Translations under genes and position numbers: made by a program | Notes under the pieces: model-generated | Told to the model about the DNA's origin: nothing | The model's input: only the letters and a program-made list of their open reading frames with translations | The model's database searches: none | DNA from: Micrococcales bacterium | Lineage (GTDB): Bacteria; Actinomycetota; Actinomycetes; Actinomycetales; Cellulomonadaceae | DNA length: 15,228 nt | Direction of reading: 5' to 3' | Assembly (NCBI GenBank): GCA_009783975.1 | Contig: WRCL01000009.1 | Location: 1 to 15,228, forward strand | Shown: in pieces, positions 3,954-11,915 of the stretch | How the letters are laid out: each line of letters begins with the position of its first letter | How positions within the stretch are numbered: position 1 is the stretch's first letter

Positions 3954-6900
3954 TCAGGCGCTCGGGCGCGACTGGCGGCGTCTCACCGTGACCAGGACGC
4001 CACCAGCGGCAAACATGAGCACCGCGAACCCCACAAGCGGCACGAGCGCGCTGCCGGTGTAGGGCAGCTTGCCCGGCCCACCTGGCTTGGCGGGAGTGTT
4101 CGGGTTGCCCGGCGCACCTGGGTCGCCCGGCTGACCAGGCAGCGGCGGGTCACCGGGGTCGCCCGGGTCGCCCGGGTCACCCGGATCGCCAGGGTCACCA
4201 GGATCGCCCGGGTCCCCAGGGTCACCCGGGTCGCTGGGGTCGCCCGGGTCAGGAGGCTCGATCGGGCTGGGGGTCCTGGGGTCGGCGAACGTCACCGTCT
4301 GGACGTCGTCGACGTTCTCGGCGGTGATGATGACCGGCGCGCTCACCGGGTCGGCCGGCAGGTCGTACCCGATCGGCGCCGACGTCTCGACCCAGAAGTA
4401 CGTGCCTTCGTCAAGGTCTTTGAGCATGCACGTCCCAGTCGCGTTCGTCGTGCACCCACCCATGACGACGTCACCTGGGCCGTAGGTCCCGTCACCGTCG
4501 TCGAGGTAGAGCTCGAACGTGCCACCAGCCAGGACCAGCGACGTGTCGTCCTCGTCGACCTTGAGCACCTGCGCGGCCCCGGGGACCCGCGGGTTGGTGA
4601 ACTGGTACACAGCGACCGTCGTCCCAGCGTTCGCGGCGTTGAGGTTCACCAGCGCGCTGGTCTGGTCGGTGGGCACCGGGTAGCCAGGTGCCGGGGAGAC
4701 CTCGTGCCAGTAGTAGTCGCCGAACACCAGGTCGGTGATGGTGCACAGCCCGTCAGCGCCGGTCGTGCACTGCTGCCCGACGGCGGCGTCGGCGACGCTG
4801 GGGGTGTTGCCCGGCTCGGTGCCGTCGGCGCTGCGGTACAGCTGGAACACCGCCCCCGGCAGCGGGGCACCACCAGGTTTGTCGACCTTGAGCACAGAGA
4901 TCGTCGTGAGGATCTCCGCGTCCCAGACCTTGGTCACCTCGAAGGTCGACCCGGCGTTGTTGACGTCGACGACGATCGGTCCGCCAACAGCACCAGCGGG
5001 GCTGACATACCCGGGCGGGGCCGTGCGCTCCACCCAGAAGTACGTGCCGAAGTCGACGTCGCCGACGGTGCACATCCCCGCGGCGTCGGACGTGCAGCTG
5101 GCCACGACGCTGTCAGCGCCGACGTCGTACACACCGTTGCCGTTGTCCTTGACCAGGTCGAACACAGCCCCGGCGACCGGCTCACCAGTCGTCGCGTCAA
5201 GCTTGAGCACGCTCAGCTGCGACATCGCCCGGTTGACGAACAGGCAGGCGGCCTTCGCCCCGCCAGGCAGGACGACGTCGTTGCGGTTGAGGATGCTCAA
5301 CGACGTCAGGCACACCGACGCGCTCTCGACGATCTTGTAGCCCGGCGGGCCGGTCTCGACGATCTTGTAGTGCTGGTCGGGGCGCAAGGTGATGGTGTAC
5401 CCGTCAGGCCCTGCGGTCCCAGGCACCTCGTGCTCGTGCGCACCAGGGGCCAACGGGGCGATCGGCACGACGGTGAAGGTGAAGTCCGAGGGTTGGGCCG
5501 TCCCACCCTGGACGGTCTTTTGGATGTTGATCGTCGCCACGGTGTTCAAGGCGGTGCACTGCATGTGCTCGCCAAGCGGCACGGCGATCCCGCCGTCGTT
5601 GCCCAAGATCATGCGCACCTGGGTGCCGTTCCCGGCGACCTGGCACGACCACGACCCGGTCGACTGCGGGTACGCCAACGGCACGGCGCGCACGTCGACC
5701 TGGGCGTAGTGCTCCAAGAACTCCGGCGTGGCGTCTGCTGTCTCAGCGAGCTGGTAGGCGACGTCCGGTGTCACCTCGACCTTGGTGACCCCGGCCGAAC
5801 CGTCACGCCCCTGCGGCCCAGGCAGCGCACCAGACGGGGCGATGGCGTTGAGGGTCCACTGGCCGGGTGTGGCTTCCCCGACGGTGTTCGCCGACAGCGA
5901 CACCGGGAAGACGACCTGTTTGGCCAACGTGAGGTAGCTCGTGCACGTCACGACGTTGGTCAGGGTCCACTCGTTGTTGCCTGGGCCCACCGGCTGGTTC
6001 GTGCGCAGGGTGTCCAGGGGCACGACGGTGCCAGACCCGGGGGCGCTGTTCGCAGGCGGACCAGGCTCGACCGTCACACGGGTGAGCTCGCACCCAGGCG
6101 GCGCGAGGGTGACGGTCTCGAGCAACCCGATGGTGGAGTCGGCGTTGGTGTAGTCATACCCGGTGCGTTCTTGGCCCCACGGCTGGGGTGAGGCTGGTGC
6201 CGGGGACGGCCCGGTCATCGACAGCTGTGAGCGCAGGCCAAGAGGCTGGGCTCCGTTGAGGTAGTCGCTCGTCGTCGACCCGACGACGACCTGCCAGCGT
6301 TTGTGCGCGACGACCGCCGCGATGTCCGACGGCTCCTCGTTGTAGACCACACAGCTGACCGAGGTGCCCGAGGACACCGTGACGCCAAATCCTGTGGTCC
6401 CGACGTTGGTCACGGCGACCGGTCCGGTCGCTTTGTCGACGCAGAAGGCGTTCTGCGTCGCCGGGGTGTCAGTGCCGGTGTCCGACACCTGGTACAGGGC
6501 GTACCCAGGCTGTGGGGTCTCAGCGATCTCGAACGTCCCCGTCGACGCGCCCTTGAAGTCCACGTCGAAGACGACACCACCGGTCGCCGGGTCTGTGAGC
6601 AGCGGGCCTGCGGCGATCTCCGCCGGGGCGACCGTCGACTGCGCGGCAAACTCCCACGGGTCAGACGGGGTGTAGGCGTCGGCGACAGACCCACCGTTGG
6701 GGATCACGCGTTTGACCACGGAGATCGTCGTCCCGCAGTCACGGGTCATCAGGTCGTGCAGCGCTGTGCCGACAGTGGAGAAATCCTCGGTCTGGATGTA
6801 GTCAGCGGTTGTGATGTTCGAACCGTCGTACTTGGTGAGCCCAGAGATCGTCCGCAGGTTGTACCCGGCGCCGTCGGACGACACACCACGTCCGACGCCG

Positions 6901-8033
6901 ACCGCCAAGATCCGGCTGTCTTGGCTCTTGAGCAGGTTCGCCGACGCACGGGCGGCGTCCAGCTCGCGGAACCTGGTGTACCCCGTCCCGCCGGTGACCG
7001 TCGGGCTGGGCCCGTAGACCGTCGGGTTGCCGTCGGTGATGAGCACGACGAGGTCGATGTGGTCCCCAGCGCCCACCGCGCCGTTGATCTCGGCAACCGC
7101 AGCAAAACCACGGTCCCAGTTCGTCCAGTTGATGAGGTTGTCGGTCCAGCCGGCGTAGTAGGCCTTGACCTTGGAGGCGTCGGCGACGGTCGCCACCGAC
7201 TGCAGGCCGGTGTTCGGCGGGTAGACCGCTCCAGCCGAGCTGACCGCCGGGGAGTCAGTGCCCAAGGTGAAGATCGCGACCTGCGACGGTGTGCCCTGCA
7301 ACGCGTCGATGACCGCGTCCATCGCGTCTTTCAGGGCCTCGACACCCTCGGCCTCCATCGATGCCGACAGGTCTGCGACGAGTGCGACGTTGAGCCCTGC
7401 GCACTGGCCCACCAGCGGCGGGTTCGCCCGCGACAAGGCGACCATGCCGCCTGAGGAGGTGCGCCGGGTGTAGGCAGCCTGCCCGGCCTCAGGTGACCCG
7501 GTGATCGCTGCGAGCCCAGGGTCGGTCACCCATGTCATCCCTGACCGGTACGTCTGGCCCGCGACGAGCGCTGGTGTGGGCCACAGGACCCGGTTGGTCT
7601 CGGTGTCGGCGGCGTTGTAGCCGGTCTGCAACGTCCCGGTCGTGTAATACCCGGCCGGTCCGCCGATCGCGCCCATCCACAGCCTCGTGCCCTGGGCGAC
7701 CCCGCCGAGGCCCACGGGTACGACGAACGAGCAGTCGCCGTCGGCGTCGGAGGTGCACGTGTAGTCCGGGGTGGCTGTGATGAACCCCGCAGCGTCGACT
7801 GCCGTGTCCGGTGGCCGGGTGACGAACAGCCCGTACCGCGCCCCGACGAGGGGGCCCACTGTCGTCGCACCTGTGCGCAGGTCGCCGACCGAGACGGTGA
7901 CGACCGCTTGGGTGGCGCTGGGCGTGGGCACGTCGGCCCGGGAGGTCACACCTGAGACGAACATCGCCGCCACCAGGCCGATGAACGTCAGGCCTGCTAC
8001 TGCTGCACGCCGCACCGACAGTGTGTACCTCAC
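3954..8033 (-). CDS. LPxTG-anchored VWA / SpaA-type surface adhesin
   Basis: A 1359-residue secreted, wall-anchored protein. The signal peptide has basic SVRR, a hydrophobic core and likely cleavage after SRA (about residue 33). A VWA domain spans roughly 212-435 with a full metal-ion site: DLSASM at 221, a TNWD threonine and LITDGNP. Three SpaA/Cna_B-like modules follow at about 938-1040, 1043-1148 and 1148-1252. Each has a VLK(L/V)D lysine and a YFWVE or YYWHE glutamate, as in isopeptide-bonded pilin folds. Next come a Pro-Gly-Asp repeat stalk, LPYTG (nt 4053-4067), a hydrophobic segment and a basic RRR tail. I chose GTG at 8033 because GGGAG lies 6 nt upstream; the ATG at 8057 has no ribosome binding site. 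The layout resembles a pilus-tip adhesin or large single-protein adhesin. The ligand is unknown. Confidence 0.88.
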   Translation of the reverse strand: MRYTLSVRRAAVAGLTFIGLVAAMFVSGVTSRADVPTPSATQAVVTVSVGDLRTGATTVGPLVGARYGLFVTRPPDTAVDAAGFITATPDYTCTSDADGDCSFVVPVGLGGVAQGTRLWMGAIGGPAGYYTTGTLQTGYNAADTETNRVLWPTPALVAGQTYRSGMTWVTDPGLAAITGSPEAGQAAYTRRTSSGGMVALSRANPPLVGQCAGLNVALVADLSASMEAEGVEALKDAMDAVIDALQGTPSQVAIFTLGTDSPAVSSAGAVYPPNTGLQSVATVADASKVKAYYAGWTDNLINWTNWDRGFAAVAEINGAVGAGDHIDLVVLITDGNPTVYGPSPTVTGGTGYTRFRELDAARASANLLKSQDSRILAVGVGRGVSSDGAGYNLRTISGLTKYDGSNITTADYIQTEDFSTVGTALHDLMTRDCGTTISVVKRVIPNGGSVADAYTPSDPWEFAAQSTVAPAEIAAGPLLTDPATGGVVFDVDFKGASTGTFEIAETPQPGYALYQVSDTGTDTPATQNAFCVDKATGPVAVTNVGTTGFGVTVSSGTSVSCVVYNEEPSDIAAVVAHKRWQVVVGSTTSDYLNGAQPLGLRSQLSMTGPSPAPASPQPWGQERTGYDYTNADSTIGLLETVTLAPPGCELTRVTVEPGPPANSAPGSGTVVPLDTLRTNQPVGPGNNEWTLTNVVTCTSYLTLAKQVVFPVSLSANTVGEATPGQWTLNAIAPSGALPGPQGRDGSAGVTKVEVTPDVAYQLAETADATPEFLEHYAQVDVRAVPLAYPQSTGSWSCQVAGNGTQVRMILGNDGGIAVPLGEHMQCTALNTVATINIQKTVQGGTAQPSDFTFTVVPIAPLAPGAHEHEVPGTAGPDGYTITLRPDQHYKIVETGPPGYKIVESASVCLTSLSILNRNDVVLPGGAKAACLFVNRAMSQLSVLKLDATTGEPVAGAVFDLVKDNGNGVYDVGADSVVASCTSDAAGMCTVGDVDFGTYFWVERTAPPGYVSPAGAVGGPIVVDVNNAGSTFEVTKVWDAEILTTISVLKVDKPGGAPLPGAVFQLYRSADGTEPGNTPSVADAAVGQQCTTGADGLCTITDLVFGDYYWHEVSPAPGYPVPTDQTSALVNLNAANAGTTVAVYQFTNPRVPGAAQVLKVDEDDTSLVLAGGTFELYLDDGDGTYGPGDVVMGGCTTNATGTCMLKDLDEGTYFWVETSAPIGYDLPADPVSAPVIITAENVDDVQTVTFADPRTPSPIEPPDPGDPSDPGDPGDPGDPGDPGDPGDPGDPGDPGDPPLPGQPGDPGAPGNPNTPAKPGGPGKLPYTGSALVPLVGFAVLMFAAGGVLVTVRRRQSRPSA
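4110..4256 (-). repeat. Pro-Gly-Asp coding repeat of the adhesin stalk
   Basis: A run of 9-nt units encodes (GDP)n, about a dozen near-perfect copies with a few variants (SDP, then PLPGQPGDPGAPGNP), between the last SpaA-like module and LPYTG. The units differ at silent positions. Such low-complexity stalks extend the binding domains beyond the wall, and their copy number can change by slippage. Confidence 0.85.
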
Positions 8034-8052
8034 ACGAGTCTCCCGTCTCTCA

Positions 8053-8080
8053 CCCATGACATGGGATCATGGGATCATTG
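8053..8080. promoter_or_regulatory. Tandem ATGGGATC octamers upstream of the adhesin gene
   Basis: ATGGGATC occurs at 8061-8068 and again directly at 8069-8076, followed by ATTGGG. CCCAT-GAC-ATGGG (8053-8065) forms a small dyad overlapping the first copy. The position, 20-45 nt upstream of the adhesin GTG, fits an operator or untranslated-leader element. No clear -35/-10 pair was identified, so the role is inferred from placement. Confidence 0.3.
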
Positions 8081-8460: not shown

Positions 8461-8710
8461 ACGGCACCATGCGACCCCGACCTGGCATACCTTGCCGAAG
8501 GCACCGACGAGTTCTGGGCGTACGTCCGCGCGCTACGCTGGGCCCAGCAGCTCGCCCTGCTCAACCGCGAGGAGATGATGGACCGCACCGTCGCCGCCGT
8601 CGCCGCGTTCACCGGCGAGGACGTCACCGAAGCCGAGCGCATCAACTGCCACCACAACTTCACCGGGAAAGAGCACCACGCACCGGCTCGTCAACGTCAA
8701 AGGCGACTGA
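8461..8710 (+). pseudogene. rtcB: Remnant of RNA-splicing ligase RtcB (internal deletion, frameshift)
   Basis: Reading from about 8470, the segments DPDLAYLAEGTDEFWAYVRA, WAQQLALLNREEMMDR and INCHHNFTGKEHH match the middle of RtcB, which joins 2',3'-cyclic phosphate and 5'-OH RNA ends. INCHHNF includes a metal-binding histidine. Right after KEHH the frame changes by one, and HRLVNVKGD with its TGA (8681-8710) matches the RtcB extreme C-terminus. So most of the C-terminal half, including the nucleotidylated histidine region, has been deleted, probably across CAC repeats near 8674-8683. The N-terminal half is also absent, leaving about 80 of more than 400 codons. It cannot be functional. Confidence 0.75.
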
Positions 8711-8735
8711 CCCTGGCCGCCACGCGGGGCCAGGG
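8711..8735. terminator. Hairpin after the rtcB remnant and the Rpn pair
   Basis: CCCTGGCC (8711-8718) and GGCCAGGG (8728-8735) form an 8-bp perfect stem with a 9-nt loop. It follows the rtcB remnant stop with no gap and lies 8 nt past the stop of the minus-strand small gene, so it can end transcription from both directions. Confidence 0.6.
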
Positions 8736-8742
8736 CCCGCCC

Positions 8743-9066
8743 CTATACCTGCGCGAGCCTGGCAACCTCAGCCACGTCCAGCCCGGTGATTGAGGCGGCT
8801 TCCTCCACGCTCATCCCTCGCCCGAGAATGGAACGGGCAACCTCCGCCATCACTGCCCGGCCCTCCTCGCGGGCCTCTTCGCGACCCTGCGCACGGCCCT
8901 CCTCACGGCCCTGCTCACGACCCTCCTCACGCGCGTAGTACTCCCTGGCCTGCCGGTCCCACTGGAACTTCGCACGGGACTCGGCCTCGAACCACGCGTT
9001 CTCCTCGGCTGTGAACCGCCTGACGACGCACTCCTCGTCACCGACGTCCCGGTTCGCTCCAGCCAT
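8743..9066 (-). CDS. Stand-alone Rpn C-terminal domain protein (RpnS-like candidate antitoxin)
   Basis: A 107-residue protein with no nuclease domain. Residues 15-107 align with the C-terminal part of the nuclease encoded just upstream: VRRF(T/S)A, KF-WD-QAREYYAREEG, an Arg-Glu-Glu-Gly repeat, and the ending SILGRGMSVEEAASITGLD, which looks like a small helix-turn-helix or oligomerisation unit. The repeat has about eight more residues than the nuclease copy. The ATG is 2 nt past the nuclease stop and has a strong AAGGGGG ribosome binding site 5 nt upstream, so the two genes are co-transcribed. Its start coincides with an internal Met of the nuclease, which suggests a duplicated intragenic antitoxin. 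A decayed nuclease copy is the alternative, but the intact ribosome binding site and frame argue against it. Confidence 0.7.
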   Translation of the reverse strand: MAGANRDVGDEECVVRRFTAEENAWFEAESRAKFQWDRQAREYYAREEGREQGREEGRAQGREEAREEGRAVMAEVARSILGRGMSVEEAASITGLDVAEVARLAQV

Positions 9067-9312
9067 GGCTACCCCCTTCGGTCGGTCCGATGAGCCCGAC
9101 CGCCCAATATCCCCCCGAGCCGGGCGACCTCGGCCGGGTCCAGCCCGGTGATGGAGGCGGCTTCCTCCACGCTCATCCCTCGCCCGAGAATGGAACGGAC
9201 AACCTCCGCCATCGCTGCCCGACCCTCCTCGCGGCCCTCCTCACGACCCTGCTCGCGGCCCTCCTCGCGCGCGTAGTACTCCCTGGCCTGCTGGTCCCAC
9301 AGGAACTTCTCG
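8764..9312. repeat. Tandem duplication of the Rpn 3' coding region
   Basis: Roughly 8764-8971 and 9126-9312 are near-identical over about 200 nt. Blocks such as GGAGGCGGCTTCCTCCACGC-type sequence and GCGTAGTACTCCCTGGCCTG are unchanged or almost so. The first copy has an extra 24 nt in the section coding for Arg-Glu-Glu-Gly. Many third positions match, so the duplication is recent or maintained by gene conversion. Confidence 0.85.
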
Positions 9313-9407
9313 CGGGCTTCGATCTCTTGGCGGACGGTCTCGTCGGCGGAGAACCGGCGGACGAGGGTGGCCGCAGCGGCGATCTCGGGGTTGCCTTCGG
9401 CTGCCAT
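9069..9407 (-). CDS. Predicted intragenic RpnS-type product within the Rpn nuclease gene
   Basis: In the frame of the nuclease, ATG at 9407 (Met194) is preceded by AGGAG (9418-9414) with a 6-nt spacer, an ideal internal ribosome binding site. It would give a 112-residue protein, MAAEGNPEIA onward, lacking the catalytic domain. In characterised enterobacterial rpn genes the C-terminal segment is translated from within and neutralises the full-length toxin. That knowledge is extended here by analogy. The neighbouring stand-alone gene begins at the equivalent residue, which supports the internal start being real. Confidence 0.5.
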   Translation of the reverse strand: MAAEGNPEIAAAATLVRRFSADETVRQEIEAREKFLWDQQAREYYAREEGREQGREEGREEGRAAMAEVVRSILGRGMSVEEAASITGLDPAEVARLGGILGGRAHRTDRRG

Positions 9408-9986
9408 GTCCAGCTCCTCTTCGGTCGTCGCGGCGATGAACCGCAACCAGGACCACGCTGCGGTCCCGTCGTTCGCGCCCAGTTTGGACAGCTCCAGGGT
9501 ACGCACCTGGATCACGCCGGAGAAGAGGTCGCGGTGCACCTCGTCGTACAGCACGTAACGGTGGGCGTAGTCCTCGTCGGTCGTCACCAGGTCAAACCCT
9601 GTGATGACCAGGACGATCGCAGGCCGCATGCGGTGGTACGGCTGCCCTGCGCGCTGGCGCGACGCCAGGAGCCGGGCGAGGTAGAACACGATCCGTTCGC
9701 GCACCCCGCGGTGGTCGAGGAGCTGGATCTCGATGTCGACGAGGATGTCGGTGCCGCTGTGGACCAGGACGTCGAGCACCGCCTCTTTGGCATGGATGTC
9801 GTCCCCGAGCAGGTGCGGCTCGCTCACGGTGAGCTCGGTCCACTCTTTGTCGGGCATGTCCGCCAGCAGGGCGGCCAGCAGCGACCGCAGCAGGGGCACA
9901 TGGTTCTGGTTGGCGAACAACCGGCGGAACAGCAGGTCGTTGCGGGGGTGCAAGATCGGAGCGGAATAGCGCTGAAGATTCGTCAT
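9069..9986 (-). CDS. Rpn-family PD-(D/E)XK nuclease / putative transposase
   Basis: A 305-residue protein of the PDDEXK_2 / Rpn type, DNA endonucleases tied to RecA-independent recombination and, in recent work, to toxin-like anti-phage defence. The N-terminal P-RNDLLFRRLF segment, Asp72 (VLDVLV) and the E86-x-Q88 pair (VDIEIQ) form the catalytic site, with Gln in place of the usual Lys, as is normal for this family. FYLARLLASRQRAGQPYHRM and LELSKLG complete the nuclease domain (about 10-185). A charged Arg-Glu-Glu-Gly region follows, then a GMSVEEAASITGLD tail. I chose ATG at 9986 because it gives the family N-terminus; the ribosome binding site there is weak and a GTG a few codons upstream is possible. 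The gene holds a probable internal start at 9407 and precedes a stand-alone duplicate of its C-terminus. Confidence 0.85.
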   Translation of the reverse strand: MTNLQRYSAPILHPRNDLLFRRLFANQNHVPLLRSLLAALLADMPDKEWTELTVSEPHLLGDDIHAKEAVLDVLVHSGTDILVDIEIQLLDHRGVRERIVFYLARLLASRQRAGQPYHRMRPAIVLVITGFDLVTTDEDYAHRYVLYDEVHRDLFSGVIQVRTLELSKLGANDGTAAWSWLRFIAATTEEELDMAAEGNPEIAAAATLVRRFSADETVRQEIEAREKFLWDQQAREYYAREEGREQGREEGREEGRAAMAEVVRSILGRGMSVEEAASITGLDPAEVARLGGILGGRAHRTDRRG

Positions 9987-10060
9987 AAGAGGATCTTCAC
10001 CCACACCACCGACACCTTGAGGCACCCAGAAACACATGCGTGAGCAGGGGTTTCGCCGTC

Positions 10061-10136
10061 GTGGGCTGGGGACGGGTCGCCAGGACCCGTCCGTCAGGTG
10101 GGCTGGGACACCCCCTGGCGGTGGGACGCCCAGCCC
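10061..10136. repeat. Hairpin flanked by GTGGGCTGGG repeats
   Basis: GGACGGGT (10070-10077) pairs with ACCCGTCC (10085-10092) over a 7-nt loop. GTGGGCTGGG occurs at 10061-10070 and again at 10098-10107, and the second copy can pair with CCCAGCCC at 10129-10136. This lies between the nuclease start and the tRNA promoter. It may insulate the two, but no role can be assigned. Confidence 0.4.
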
Positions 10137-10164
10137 TTCCACCACCGCTGGCCAGGATTTGGGT

Positions 10165-10193
10165 TTGGGGACCTCCGCCTCGCCCTGTACTCT
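10165..10193 (+). promoter_or_regulatory. Promoter of tRNA-Arg
   Basis: TTGGGG (10165-10170) and TACTCT (10188-10193) are separated by 17 nt, a normal housekeeping spacing. The expected start near 10200 leaves an 18-nt leader before the mature tRNA. Confidence 0.6.
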
Positions 10194-10217
10194 CGTGCCT
10201 TGACCCGCAAGGGTCCG

Positions 10218-10290
10218 GCGCCCGTGGCTCAATGGATAGAGCACCTGACTACGGATCAGGAGGTTGGGGGTTCGAGTCCCTCCGGGCGCG
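10218..10290 (+). tRNA. tRNA-Arg (anticodon ACG)
   Basis: A complete 73-nt cloverleaf. Acceptor stem GCGCCCG/CGGGCGC with discriminator G; D arm GCTC-AATGGATA-GAGC; anticodon arm CCTGA-CTACGGA-TCAGG with anticodon ACG at 10251-10253; variable loop AGGTT; T arm GGGGG-TTCGAGT-CCCTC with one G-T pair. The 3' CCA is not encoded. It decodes CGU (and, after A34 deamination to inosine, CGC and CGA). tRNA-Arg 3' ends are common integration targets, but no second copy of the 3' end is present in this window. Confidence 0.97.
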
Positions 10291-10298
10291 CCGAGTCC

Positions 10299-10355
10299 CT
10301 GACCAGGCATGATGTGCAGGACACTGGGGACGGTTCCTATGTCTTGCGAGGTCAG
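10299..10355 (+). repeat. REP-like palindrome, copy 3, downstream of tRNA-Arg
   Basis: GACACTGGGGACGGTTCC continues into TATGTCTTGCGAGGTCAG (10320-10355). Here the dyad extends further out: CTGACC at 10299-10304 is the inverse of GGTCAG at 10350-10355. It lies 8 nt after the tRNA and could act in 3' processing or termination. Confidence 0.75.
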
Positions 10356-10635: not shown

Positions 10636-11902
10636 TGGGGCTGACCGTCGCGAGGACCTCGCCGTGCGGGGAGCGGACCTGGGCGCGGGGGGTGGTCGTG
10701 ATGTCCAGGTCGACGATGAGCGAACCGGCGTCGGCGGTGGACTGGTAGACGTAGTGGGTGTTCGTCAGCTCCAGGGTGCGGGTGTGGGCGCGGACCAGCC
10801 AGGGGTGGCGCCGGCGCAGGCCGAGCAGCTGCTGGTGCAGGCGGAACGCCCGGCCCTCCGGACCGTCCCAGGGCAAGGTGGGGGCTGGGACGAACGCGGG
10901 GCGCACAGCGTCGTCGCCGTCCCAGCCGTCGGTCTTCACGCCGGTCCAGCCCAGCTCGTCGCCGGCGTAGACGCTGGGGATACCGCCGACGGTCGCCAGG
11001 ACGACCAGGGCCAGCGCCGCGGCGTCGGGGCCGACCTTGCTGGCGATGCGGGTGACGTCGTGGTTGCCGACGAAGGTGTTGGGCACGAACGCCGCGAGCA
11101 GGTCGTTGTGGCGGCGCAACGCCCACTCGAGCTCGAAGAAGTTGCGGTCGACCAGGGCGGACCAGATGGCTTTCCACAGCTGGTACTGGGTGATCGAGTC
11201 GACGCCCGACGCTGCGGCGGTCTCGCGGTAGTCACCGTGGATGACCTCGGCGAGGAACCACGTCCGCCGGTGCCGCGCCCGGACCTGGGCGACGACGTCG
11301 GCCCAGAACCCCGGGTCGACGGCGTACGCGGCGTCCAGGCGCCAGGCGTCCACGCCCCGGGCGGTCCAGCGGTCGATGATGCCGACGGTCCACGCGCGTA
11401 CGGCAGGGTTGGCGTGGTTGAGCTCGACGAGGGTGTCGTGGCCTTCGAACACGGCCGGGCGGGGGCCCCCCGGGGCGTCCCAGTCGATGGCGAACCAGTC
11501 GGCGTCGGGGCCGTGCGGGCCGTCGGCCAGGGCTGCGCGCACCCGCGGGTGGTCGCGGCTGACGTGGTTGAACACCCCGTCGAGGCACACCCGCACCCCG
11601 CGGTCGTGGGCGGCGGCGACCAGGGCGTCCAGGTCGTCGTCGGTGCCCAGGCGCGGGTCGACGTGGTCGTGGTCGAGCGTGTCGTACCCGTGGGTCGCCG
11701 AGGTGAACACCGGGCCGAGCAGCAGCCCGTTGGCACCCAGGGCCAGCACGTGGTCGAGCCAGGCGGTGACCTGGCCCAGACGGTGCTCACCGGCGTGCTG
11801 CGCCGCCTCGGCGCTGTGGGGGCCAGGCCAGTCGCGGATCGGCGCCCCGACGAACCCCAGCGGGTACATGTGCCACCAGATGGTGTGCTCGGTCCAGTCC
11901 AT
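10625..11902 (-). CDS. GH13 alpha-amylase family glycosidase
   Basis: A 425-residue glycoside hydrolase of family 13 acting on alpha-1,4-glucans or short maltodextrins. All four conserved regions are present: I, DGVFNHV; II, GVDAWRLDAAY with the nucleophile Asp; III, FLAEVIHGD with the acid/base Glu; IV, FVGNHDVTRI with the transition-state Asp. A small beta-domain with the LIVDLDI strand closes the protein. There is no signal peptide, so it should act in the cytoplasm, as in glycogen or maltodextrin turnover. It is shorter than secreted amylases and lacks a starch-binding domain. ATG at 11902 follows GGGGAGGAG, an excellent ribosome binding site. The final Ser-Glu-Lys and stop come from an inverted repeat. 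It stands alone: no sugar transporter or regulator is nearby. Confidence 0.92.
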   Translation of the reverse strand: MDWTEHTIWWHMYPLGFVGAPIRDWPGPHSAEAAQHAGEHRLGQVTAWLDHVLALGANGLLLGPVFTSATHGYDTLDHDHVDPRLGTDDDLDALVAAAHDRGVRVCLDGVFNHVSRDHPRVRAALADGPHGPDADWFAIDWDAPGGPRPAVFEGHDTLVELNHANPAVRAWTVGIIDRWTARGVDAWRLDAAYAVDPGFWADVVAQVRARHRRTWFLAEVIHGDYRETAAASGVDSITQYQLWKAIWSALVDRNFFELEWALRRHNDLLAAFVPNTFVGNHDVTRIASKVGPDAAALALVVLATVGGIPSVYAGDELGWTGVKTDGWDGDDAVRPAFVPAPTLPWDGPEGRAFRLHQQLLGLRRRHPWLVRAHTRTLELTNTHYVYQSTADAGSLIVDLDITTTPRAQVRSPHGEVLATVSPSEK

Positions 11903-11915
11903 CGCTCCTCCCCTC

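What the first reader, a model, noticed from the sequence alone, without database searches (positions are those of the whole stretch)
8743..9986. Rpn nuclease with both a nested and a duplicated stand-alone C-terminal protein: candidate toxin/antitoxin defence pair
Seen: a PDDEXK nuclease (Asp72, Glu86-x-Gln88) contains an internal ATG at codon 194 with AGGAG six nt upstream. The gene 2 nt downstream encodes only the matching C-terminal part, starts at the equivalent residue, has its own AAGGGGG ribosome binding site and differs by an 8-residue repeat expansion. Known: in characterised enterobacterial Rpn systems the full-length DNA nuclease is toxic and anti-phage, and a C-terminal RpnS made from inside the gene neutralises it. 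Inference: here the nested antitoxin has been duplicated into a separate gene, giving two antitoxin sources whose diverged sequences may form mixed oligomers or differ in affinity.
Basis: partly seen in the sequence, partly recalled or inferred. Interest (0 to 1): 0.82.

Follow-up and report, generated by a model that had tools for sequence, protein, structure and literature searches.

The report
Nuclease gene with mismatched spare antitoxin
A bacterial DNA-cutting defence gene of a known family is followed by a separate copy of its own built-in inhibitor domain; that layout is already published, but here and in relatives the copy carries a different number of a short repeat that sets which partner it fits, so it looks more like a spare, swappable specificity part than a second brake.

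Summary
The sequence observation is correct. The 305-aa Rpn nuclease (PF12784, TIGR01784) has an in-frame ATG at codon 194 behind AGGAG. Two bases after its stop lies an intact 107-aa gene matching its C-terminal part, with its own ribosome site and eight extra residues (two 4-residue repeats). The layout is not new: Zhong et al. 2023 describe nested RpnS and separate downstream copies in E. coli. My addition: in every co-resident pair I could score the repeat lengths differ (0 of 9 non-E. coli nuclease/stand-alone pairs match, 0 of 11 rpnE and 0 of 3 rpnC haplotypes, 0 of 5 tandem full-length pairs); a permutation test does not show active avoidance. Two single-copy E. coli strains have a nuclease domain identical to a two-copy strain's but a tail like the latter's stand-alone gene, so the spare C-terminus appears to swap onto the nuclease. 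Best reading: a repeat-shifted RpnS paralogue acting as a spare specificity cassette, with weak or no neutralisation of its neighbour (inferred, untested). New member of a known kind.

The parts
9069..9986 (-). RpnL: full-length PD-(D/E)XK nuclease, 305 aa
   Evidence: PF12784 131 bits (cut-off 27.4), TIGR01784 107.9 bits (cut-off 52.1)
9723..9773 (-). active-site stretch D72 ... E86-x-Q88
   Evidence: D72 and E86 invariant in 8 of 8; predicted model has strands at 73-76 and 82-88
9414..9418 (-). AGGAG ribosome-binding-like site of the nested start
   Evidence: purine-rich GAGGAG or GAGGGAG also precedes an internal ATG in 7 of 8 relatives examined, but it encodes conserved Glu residues
9069..9407 (-). 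nested RpnS reading frame, codons 194-305
   Evidence: sequence; translation inferred from the family
9072..9078 (-). AAGGGGG ribosome-binding-like site of the stand-alone gene, inside the end of RpnL
8743..9066 (-). stand-alone RpnS-like gene, 107 aa
   Evidence: predicted helices 20-82, 87-94, 98-106
8872..8895 (-). 24-nt, 8-residue (two 4-aa repeats) insertion relative to RpnL
8741..8907 (-). direct repeat, stand-alone copy (matches 9103-9269 at 88%)

Best explanation
This is an Rpn nuclease locus. SHOWN: a full-length nuclease carries an in-frame internal ATG with a ribosome-like site for its C-terminal dimerisation/antitoxin domain, and a second C-terminal gene follows at once. The second gene has an open frame but two extra 4-residue repeats in the long helix. 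INFERRED: the nested RpnS, which by construction has the same repeat number as its RpnL, is the cognate antitoxin. The stand-alone protein is a repeat-shifted paralogue that pairs mainly with itself and neutralises its neighbour weakly or not at all. It persists as a spare C-terminal cassette: recombination between nested and stand-alone copies can put the spare tail on the nuclease. Because the antitoxin is nested in that tail, toxin and antitoxin then change specificity together in one safe step.
For: Published: only RpnCS with the same repeat number blocks RpnCL (PMC10327210). The window pair differs by two repeats. No scorable pair matched: 0 of 9 distinct non-E. coli nuclease/stand-alone pairs, 0 of 11 distinct rpnE haplotypes from 17 records, 0 of 3 rpnC haplotypes from 4 records, 0 of 5 scorable tandem full-length pairs. 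Cassette swap: single-copy E. coli L202 and two-copy L058 have identical nuclease domains (0 of 696 nt), yet the L202 tail matches the L058 stand-alone gene (0 mismatches, one 24-nt gap, i.e. two repeats fewer) better than its nested tail (29 mismatches, 15 gap columns); L200/L208 likewise (0 of 696; 4 mismatches, no gap, against 25 mismatches, 63 gap columns). All 6 fetched single-copy strains have the stand-alone-type tail. The two-copy/one-copy label changes at least 5 times on the nuclease tree, at least 4 forced by well-supported branches. The window copies are themselves a mosaic.
Against: No expression, binding or toxicity data for this organism. The repeat-number rule was tested in print for one protein (RpnC). 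Avoidance of matching is not significant: permuting the 11 rpnE haplotypes expects 0.9 matches and gives none in 33% of shuffles, so fast neutral repeat slippage may suffice. The tail swap is seen in E. coli rpnE only, not in the window's genus, and a tail next to the 3' flank is also what an ancestral single copy would keep; direction (deletion against gain, or transfer of a larger segment) rests on parsimony. K-12 RpnE is inactive in assays (PMC5350276 passages). In L202 the swapped tail has 2 repeats, while the L058 stand-alone gene has 4.
Confidence: 0.42

Rival explanations
1. Second antitoxin: the stand-alone gene adds RpnS dose or a tuned-affinity partner to the same nuclease, coupled to it by the 2-nt spacing.
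For: Own ribosome-like site, 2-nt spacing, open frame and a synonymous excess in the C-terminal two thirds. In G053 the copy's frame, read from its first ATG, overlaps the end of RpnL by 8 nt. The E. coli stand-alone protein YpaA is made in the cell (PMC10327210). The flanks on both sides of the insertion are nearly identical to RpnL.
Against: Repeat number differs by two here and differs in each pair scored; in print a mismatch by one repeat abolishes neutralisation.
Confidence: 0.25
2. Passive relic: a tandem duplication that slippage and decay are eroding, with no function.
For: Broken or partial copies occur beside other RpnL genes (L146, L096, L090, L099, L070). Repeats slip readily: tandem full-length RpnL genes 96% identical in the tail already differ by one repeat (L077). 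RefSeq marks the E. coli rpnE copy as a pseudogene or incomplete. No close orthologue of the window gene was found.
Against: Frame open with an in-frame 24-nt indel; synonymous excess between the copies, p 0.019; the stand-alone copy is present in 34 of 60 evenly drawn E. coli genomes; protein detected for ypaA.
Confidence: 0.25
3. Antitoxin for a different, currently or formerly resident or incoming RpnL allele with the longer repeat (anti-addiction).
For: Repeat number acts as the matching code in print; the genome holds six further rpn matches; rpn genes are patchy (3 of 81 genus genomes; 8 of 396 in the order, own genome counted in both).
Against: The other rpn genes in the 68%-complete genome whose repeat region could be read (L002, L003, part of L005) have other repeat sequences; the remaining matches stop before the repeats.
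Confidence: 0.08

Closest known systems
E. coli rpnE-ypaA (rpnES) and rpnC with downstream rpnCS (Zhong et al. 2023, PMC10327210)
   Same: Full-length PD-(D/E)XK nuclease with nested RpnS and a separate downstream RpnS gene; 4-residue repeats in the long helix; repeat length differs between the two copies in each haplotype I read.
   Different: High-GC actinobacterial host; the nested product would be 112 aa, against 49 residues for the RpnA-S chain in 7TH0, because the start lies further upstream; gap of 2 nt; REEG/REQG-type repeats.
RpnA-S crystal structure 7TH0
   Same: Predicted long helix plus two short helices. Foldseek pairs the model with 7TH0 over 37 columns at rmsd 1.4 (TM 0.67 by target length); the RpnL profile also finds it.
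   Different: Both matches are individually weak (Foldseek E 2.6, rank 49; profile E 0.39). The first helix is 63 residues in the window's stand-alone model and 53 in RpnL.
Orphan C-terminal cassettes of polymorphic toxins (recalled, from no call)
   Same: A spare C-terminal module behind a full gene that can recombine onto it.
   Different: Here the spare carries the antitoxin/dimerisation domain, not the toxic domain; the likeness is an analogy only.

Membership tests
Rpn recombination-promoting nuclease / RpnL-RpnS toxin-antitoxin | PDDEXK_2 / TIGR01784 domain above curated cut-off | tested here: met
   131 and 107.9 bits for the large protein
Rpn recombination-promoting nuclease / RpnL-RpnS toxin-antitoxin | Catalytic Asp and Glu-x-(Lys/Gln) in a nuclease core | tested here: met
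   D72, E86, Q88; D72/E86 invariant in 8 of 8. The fold search gave no significant match; some restriction-type nucleases are among the insignificant hits
Rpn recombination-promoting nuclease / RpnL-RpnS toxin-antitoxin | Internal start with ribosome-binding site giving a C-terminal small protein | tested here: inconclusive
   Site present in the window and in 7 of 8 relatives examined, but it coincides with conserved Glu/Met codons; translation not testable here
Rpn recombination-promoting nuclease / RpnL-RpnS toxin-antitoxin | 4-residue repeats in a long C-terminal helix that vary in number | tested here: met
   8-residue difference inside the predicted long helix; 13 of 14 non-E. coli net differences are multiples of 4
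Cognate RpnS antitoxin (claim for the stand-alone gene) | Same repeat number as the RpnL it blocks (Zhong et al., Fig. 4D legend) | tested here: not met
   Two repeats more than RpnL
Rpn recombination-promoting nuclease / RpnL-RpnS toxin-antitoxin | RpnL toxic, RpnS neutralises, protects against phage | not testable with these tools
   Needs laboratory assays; PADLOC-DB 2.0.0 has no match for either protein
Rpn recombination-promoting nuclease / RpnL-RpnS toxin-antitoxin | Gained and lost as a unit, without own inverted terminal repeats | tested here: met
   Pair absent from the syntenic site of one relative, G052; in 8500-10300 only two weak inverted repeats (16-22 nt, 73-81%), neither framing the pair

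The most novel reading that the evidence does not exclude
Rpn C-terminal domains that share a cell obey an exclusion rule: their helix-repeat number must differ, which insulates each nuclease and its antitoxin from the other. Stand-alone rpnS genes such as this one are silent specificity cassettes. One recombination event moves a cassette onto the nuclease and, because the antitoxin is nested in it, re-codes toxin and antitoxin together. This would explain both why the antitoxin is nested and why spare copies are kept.
Probability: 0.25. Interest if true: 0.75.

Novelty: new member of a known kind. Interest (0 to 1): 0.5.

Why it matters
Stand-alone RpnS genes are published but what they are for is open. 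If co-resident Rpn tails must differ in repeat number and can be swapped onto the nuclease, then the nested antitoxin, the hypervariable repeats and the spare copies become one system for re-coding toxin-antitoxin specificity without ever leaving the toxin unguarded. That can be tested directly with natural E. coli alleles in laboratory strains.

Tried and rejected
Chance match: rejected (shuffle control). Assembly duplicate: unlikely, since the copies differ at 59 of 297 aligned nt. Read as a simple recent copy of the nested gene: rejected, because the first 30 codons are far more diverged than the rest. Active avoidance of equal repeat number: not shown (permutation P 0.33 on 11 rpnE haplotypes; with no match in 28 pairs a true match rate of 10% would still give P 0.05, and the 28 are not independent). 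Viral contigs: no relative. A profile scan of genome contigs could not be run; the single-protein scan found 3 loci. Fold search with RpnL gave nothing significant.

Rows dropped before counting; copies L146, L096, L090, L099, L070 (broken or without the repeat region), L041 (judged chance, z 8.3), and three repeat listings of the window plus one of G053; a full-length RpnL was recognised in only 12 of the 36 loci; of its matches L302 (stops inside the repeats) and L318 (cut by a contig end) were left out. L012/L015 (contig end), L178 (partial), and L102 as a duplicate of L077. The loci were the best matches plus those, not a random draw, and the E. coli records were picked from evenly spread search listings for differing length, so none of these frequencies are population frequencies. 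One tree row (L055) was 51 nt longer than the others. In one search most output was low-complexity noise and was not used. One search served only to choose records.

Full report
Observation. On the minus strand, RpnL (9986-9069, 305 aa) carries PF12784 and TIGR01784 well above cut-off, D72/E86/Q88 and an internal ATG at codon 194 with AGGAG six nt before it. Its TAG is followed after two nt by the ATG of a 107-aa gene (9066-8743) whose ribosome-like site lies inside the end of RpnL. That gene aligns from RpnL residue 195 to near its end at 66% identity, with one 8-residue insertion between nearly identical flanks. RpnL runs 12 codons past the position where the stand-alone copy stops, and longer than the relatives aligned; residues 295-305 are of low confidence in the model.

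The two copies. Divergence is uneven: 38 of 90 nt differ in the first 30 aligned codons and 21 of 207 in the other 69 (Fisher 1e-9). After codon 35, synonymous sites differ more than non-synonymous ones (9 of 47.7 against 9 of 144.3, p 0.019). This fits coding genes whose 3' parts were exchanged or copied more recently than the 5' part. The predicted stand-alone fold is one long helix (20-82) and two short ones, with a low-confidence start (mean pLDDT 80.8, pTM 0.40). RpnL ends in the same three helices with a shorter first helix (216-268; mean pLDDT 79.7, pTM 0.69). Foldseek pairs the stand-alone model with RpnA-S (7TH0) over 37 columns, weakly. No fold match of RpnL is significant.

Distribution and site. 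In the genus, 3 of 81 genomes have any match to RpnL, in a draw from the order 8 of 396, in a draw from the phylum 5 of 396 with TIGR01784; the own genome is counted each time. No close orthologue of either protein was found in the 5.8-billion set, whose search works by shared exact words: the best other RpnL hits are 46-54% identical, the stand-alone's hits 53% or less. In G052 of the same genus, stretches matching window 8472-8725, 10163-10291 and 10653-11911 lie in the same order, but neither rpn protein is found between them. A frame like the window's RtcB fragment, a PIN-domain gene and a tRNA-Arg lie there instead (the longer rtcB-like frame was read by eye, not run through Pfam). The pair therefore sits at a variable site; that it moved as a unit is inferred from one empty site.

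What is already known. Zhong et al. 2023 (PMC10327210, the preprint; whole main text read; supplements not readable) show that RpnS is made from inside rpn genes, blocks RpnL, dimerises through a helix with variable 4-residue repeats, and can also be encoded by a separate downstream gene (ypaA after rpnE, a copy after rpnC), or be fused or lost. Their Fig. 4D legend states that only RpnCS with the same repeat number blocks RpnCL. Kingston et al. 2017 (PMC5350276; passages only) found K-12 RpnE inactive. I saw no remark in the Zhong main text that downstream copies differ in repeat number from their neighbour. Searches listed no other paper on it; of the review PMC12707154 I saw passages only.

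Repeat mismatch. Within the genus, the G053 pair has a stand-alone copy 12 residues shorter than its RpnL. Among 178 RpnL ORFs with their 3' end in view (186 loci, some overlapping), one search gave six distinct intact downstream copies: window +8, G053 -12, L114 +16, L073 -11, L128 +16, L142 -8 (net). Most RpnL genes thus have none. One search, on 36 further loci of which 12 held a recognised RpnL, added L298 (two stand-alone copies, -12 and -4) and L300 (-12). In E. coli, 17 two-copy rpnE records gave 11 distinct (nested, stand-alone) counts, none equal: (0,1) (3,1) (5,2) (1,4) (8,1) (8,4) (5,1) (5,0) (8,6) (6,4) (1,2). Three rpnC haplotypes from four records differ by -10, -10 and -14 residues. 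As a comparison, tandem full-length RpnL pairs also differ: 4, 4, 12, 36 and 8 residues in the five that could be scored. So decoupling is general in what I saw. Active avoidance is not shown: shuffling stand-alone alleles over the 11 rpnE haplotypes expects 0.9 matches and gives none in 33% of shuffles.

Cassette swap. Of 60 evenly drawn E. coli genomes, 34 have the stand-alone copy, 25 appear to have one copy only and 1 gave a partial match (read from the matches). All six single-copy rpnE genes fetched carry the stand-alone-type tail: against seven two-copy strains, 0-5 mismatches (repeat gaps apart) to the closest stand-alone gene and at least 23 to any nested tail. On a tree of the nuclease domain (19 rows) one-copy and two-copy strains are interspersed, at least five changes, at least four of them forced by well-supported branches. 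Two one-copy strains have a nuclease domain identical to a two-copy strain (0 of 696 nt), with a tail near-identical, repeats apart, to that strain's stand-alone gene: L202/L058 (2 repeats against 4) and L200/L208 (0 against 0). In L200/L208 the count on the nuclease differs by five repeats (0 against 5). Since the two-copy strains read share one distinct nested-type tail, repeated deletion fusion is the simplest history, but transfer of larger segments or an ancestral single copy in part of the strains is possible. Zhong et al. mention such fusion; reading it as a change of specificity is my inference.

Origin of stand-alone copies. In L298 both stand-alone copies begin with a close match to the first 17 or so residues and ribosome-like site of their RpnL and then continue with the C-terminal domain, as if a full copy had lost its nuclease core in frame. 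In the window and in G053 the start is different, so stand-alone copies may arise in more than one way.

Mechanism. The nested RpnS always has its RpnL's repeat number and is the likely cognate antitoxin. The stand-alone protein has a first helix two repeats longer and, by the published rule, should pair poorly with RpnL. I judge a spare specificity cassette most likely (0.42), a second antitoxin or a relic less so (0.25 each). None of this has been tested in this organism.

Verdict. The added value is the repeat mismatch across lineages and the evidence for tail exchange, both open to simple tests with natural alleles.

Noticed in passing
window 8472-8711 (+): Fragment of an RtcB RNA ligase gene (RtcB profile positions 213-289 of 426 only) directly beside the stand-alone gene; G052 has a longer rtcB-like frame at the same site followed by a PIN-domain gene (L245 2482-2979), suggesting a site where such modules change.
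   Followed up: partly
L298 (G1015), minus strand: Two successive stand-alone copies after one RpnL, each starting with a close match to RpnL's own first ~17 residues and ribosome-like site joined to the C-terminal domain; all three tails differ in repeat length.
   Followed up: partly
window 9069-9107 (-): RpnL extends 12 codons beyond the stop position of the stand-alone copy, ending inside the stand-alone gene's leader; the last 11 residues are low-confidence in the model.
   Followed up: partly
L077 (G993): Two adjacent full-length RpnL genes about 98% identical differ by exactly one 4-residue repeat.
   Followed up: partly
G000, six further places: The 68%-complete source genome holds a second full-length rpn gene (C7) and five partial matches, three of them at contig ends.
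   Followed up: no
L054 12817-13002 and E. coli relatives: RefSeq marks the E. coli stand-alone gene (ypaA) as a pseudogene or as missing its N-terminus in the records fetched, although the protein was detected by Zhong et al.
   Followed up: no
RpnL C-terminal profile: A solved chain named CAP REPEAT (8vd6) matches the C-terminal stretch five times (E 2.7e-16); meaning unknown.
   Followed up: no
window 3954-8057 (-): Large 1367-aa surface-type protein with SpaA prealbumin-like domains and a weak VWA match near the rpn pair.
   Followed up: no
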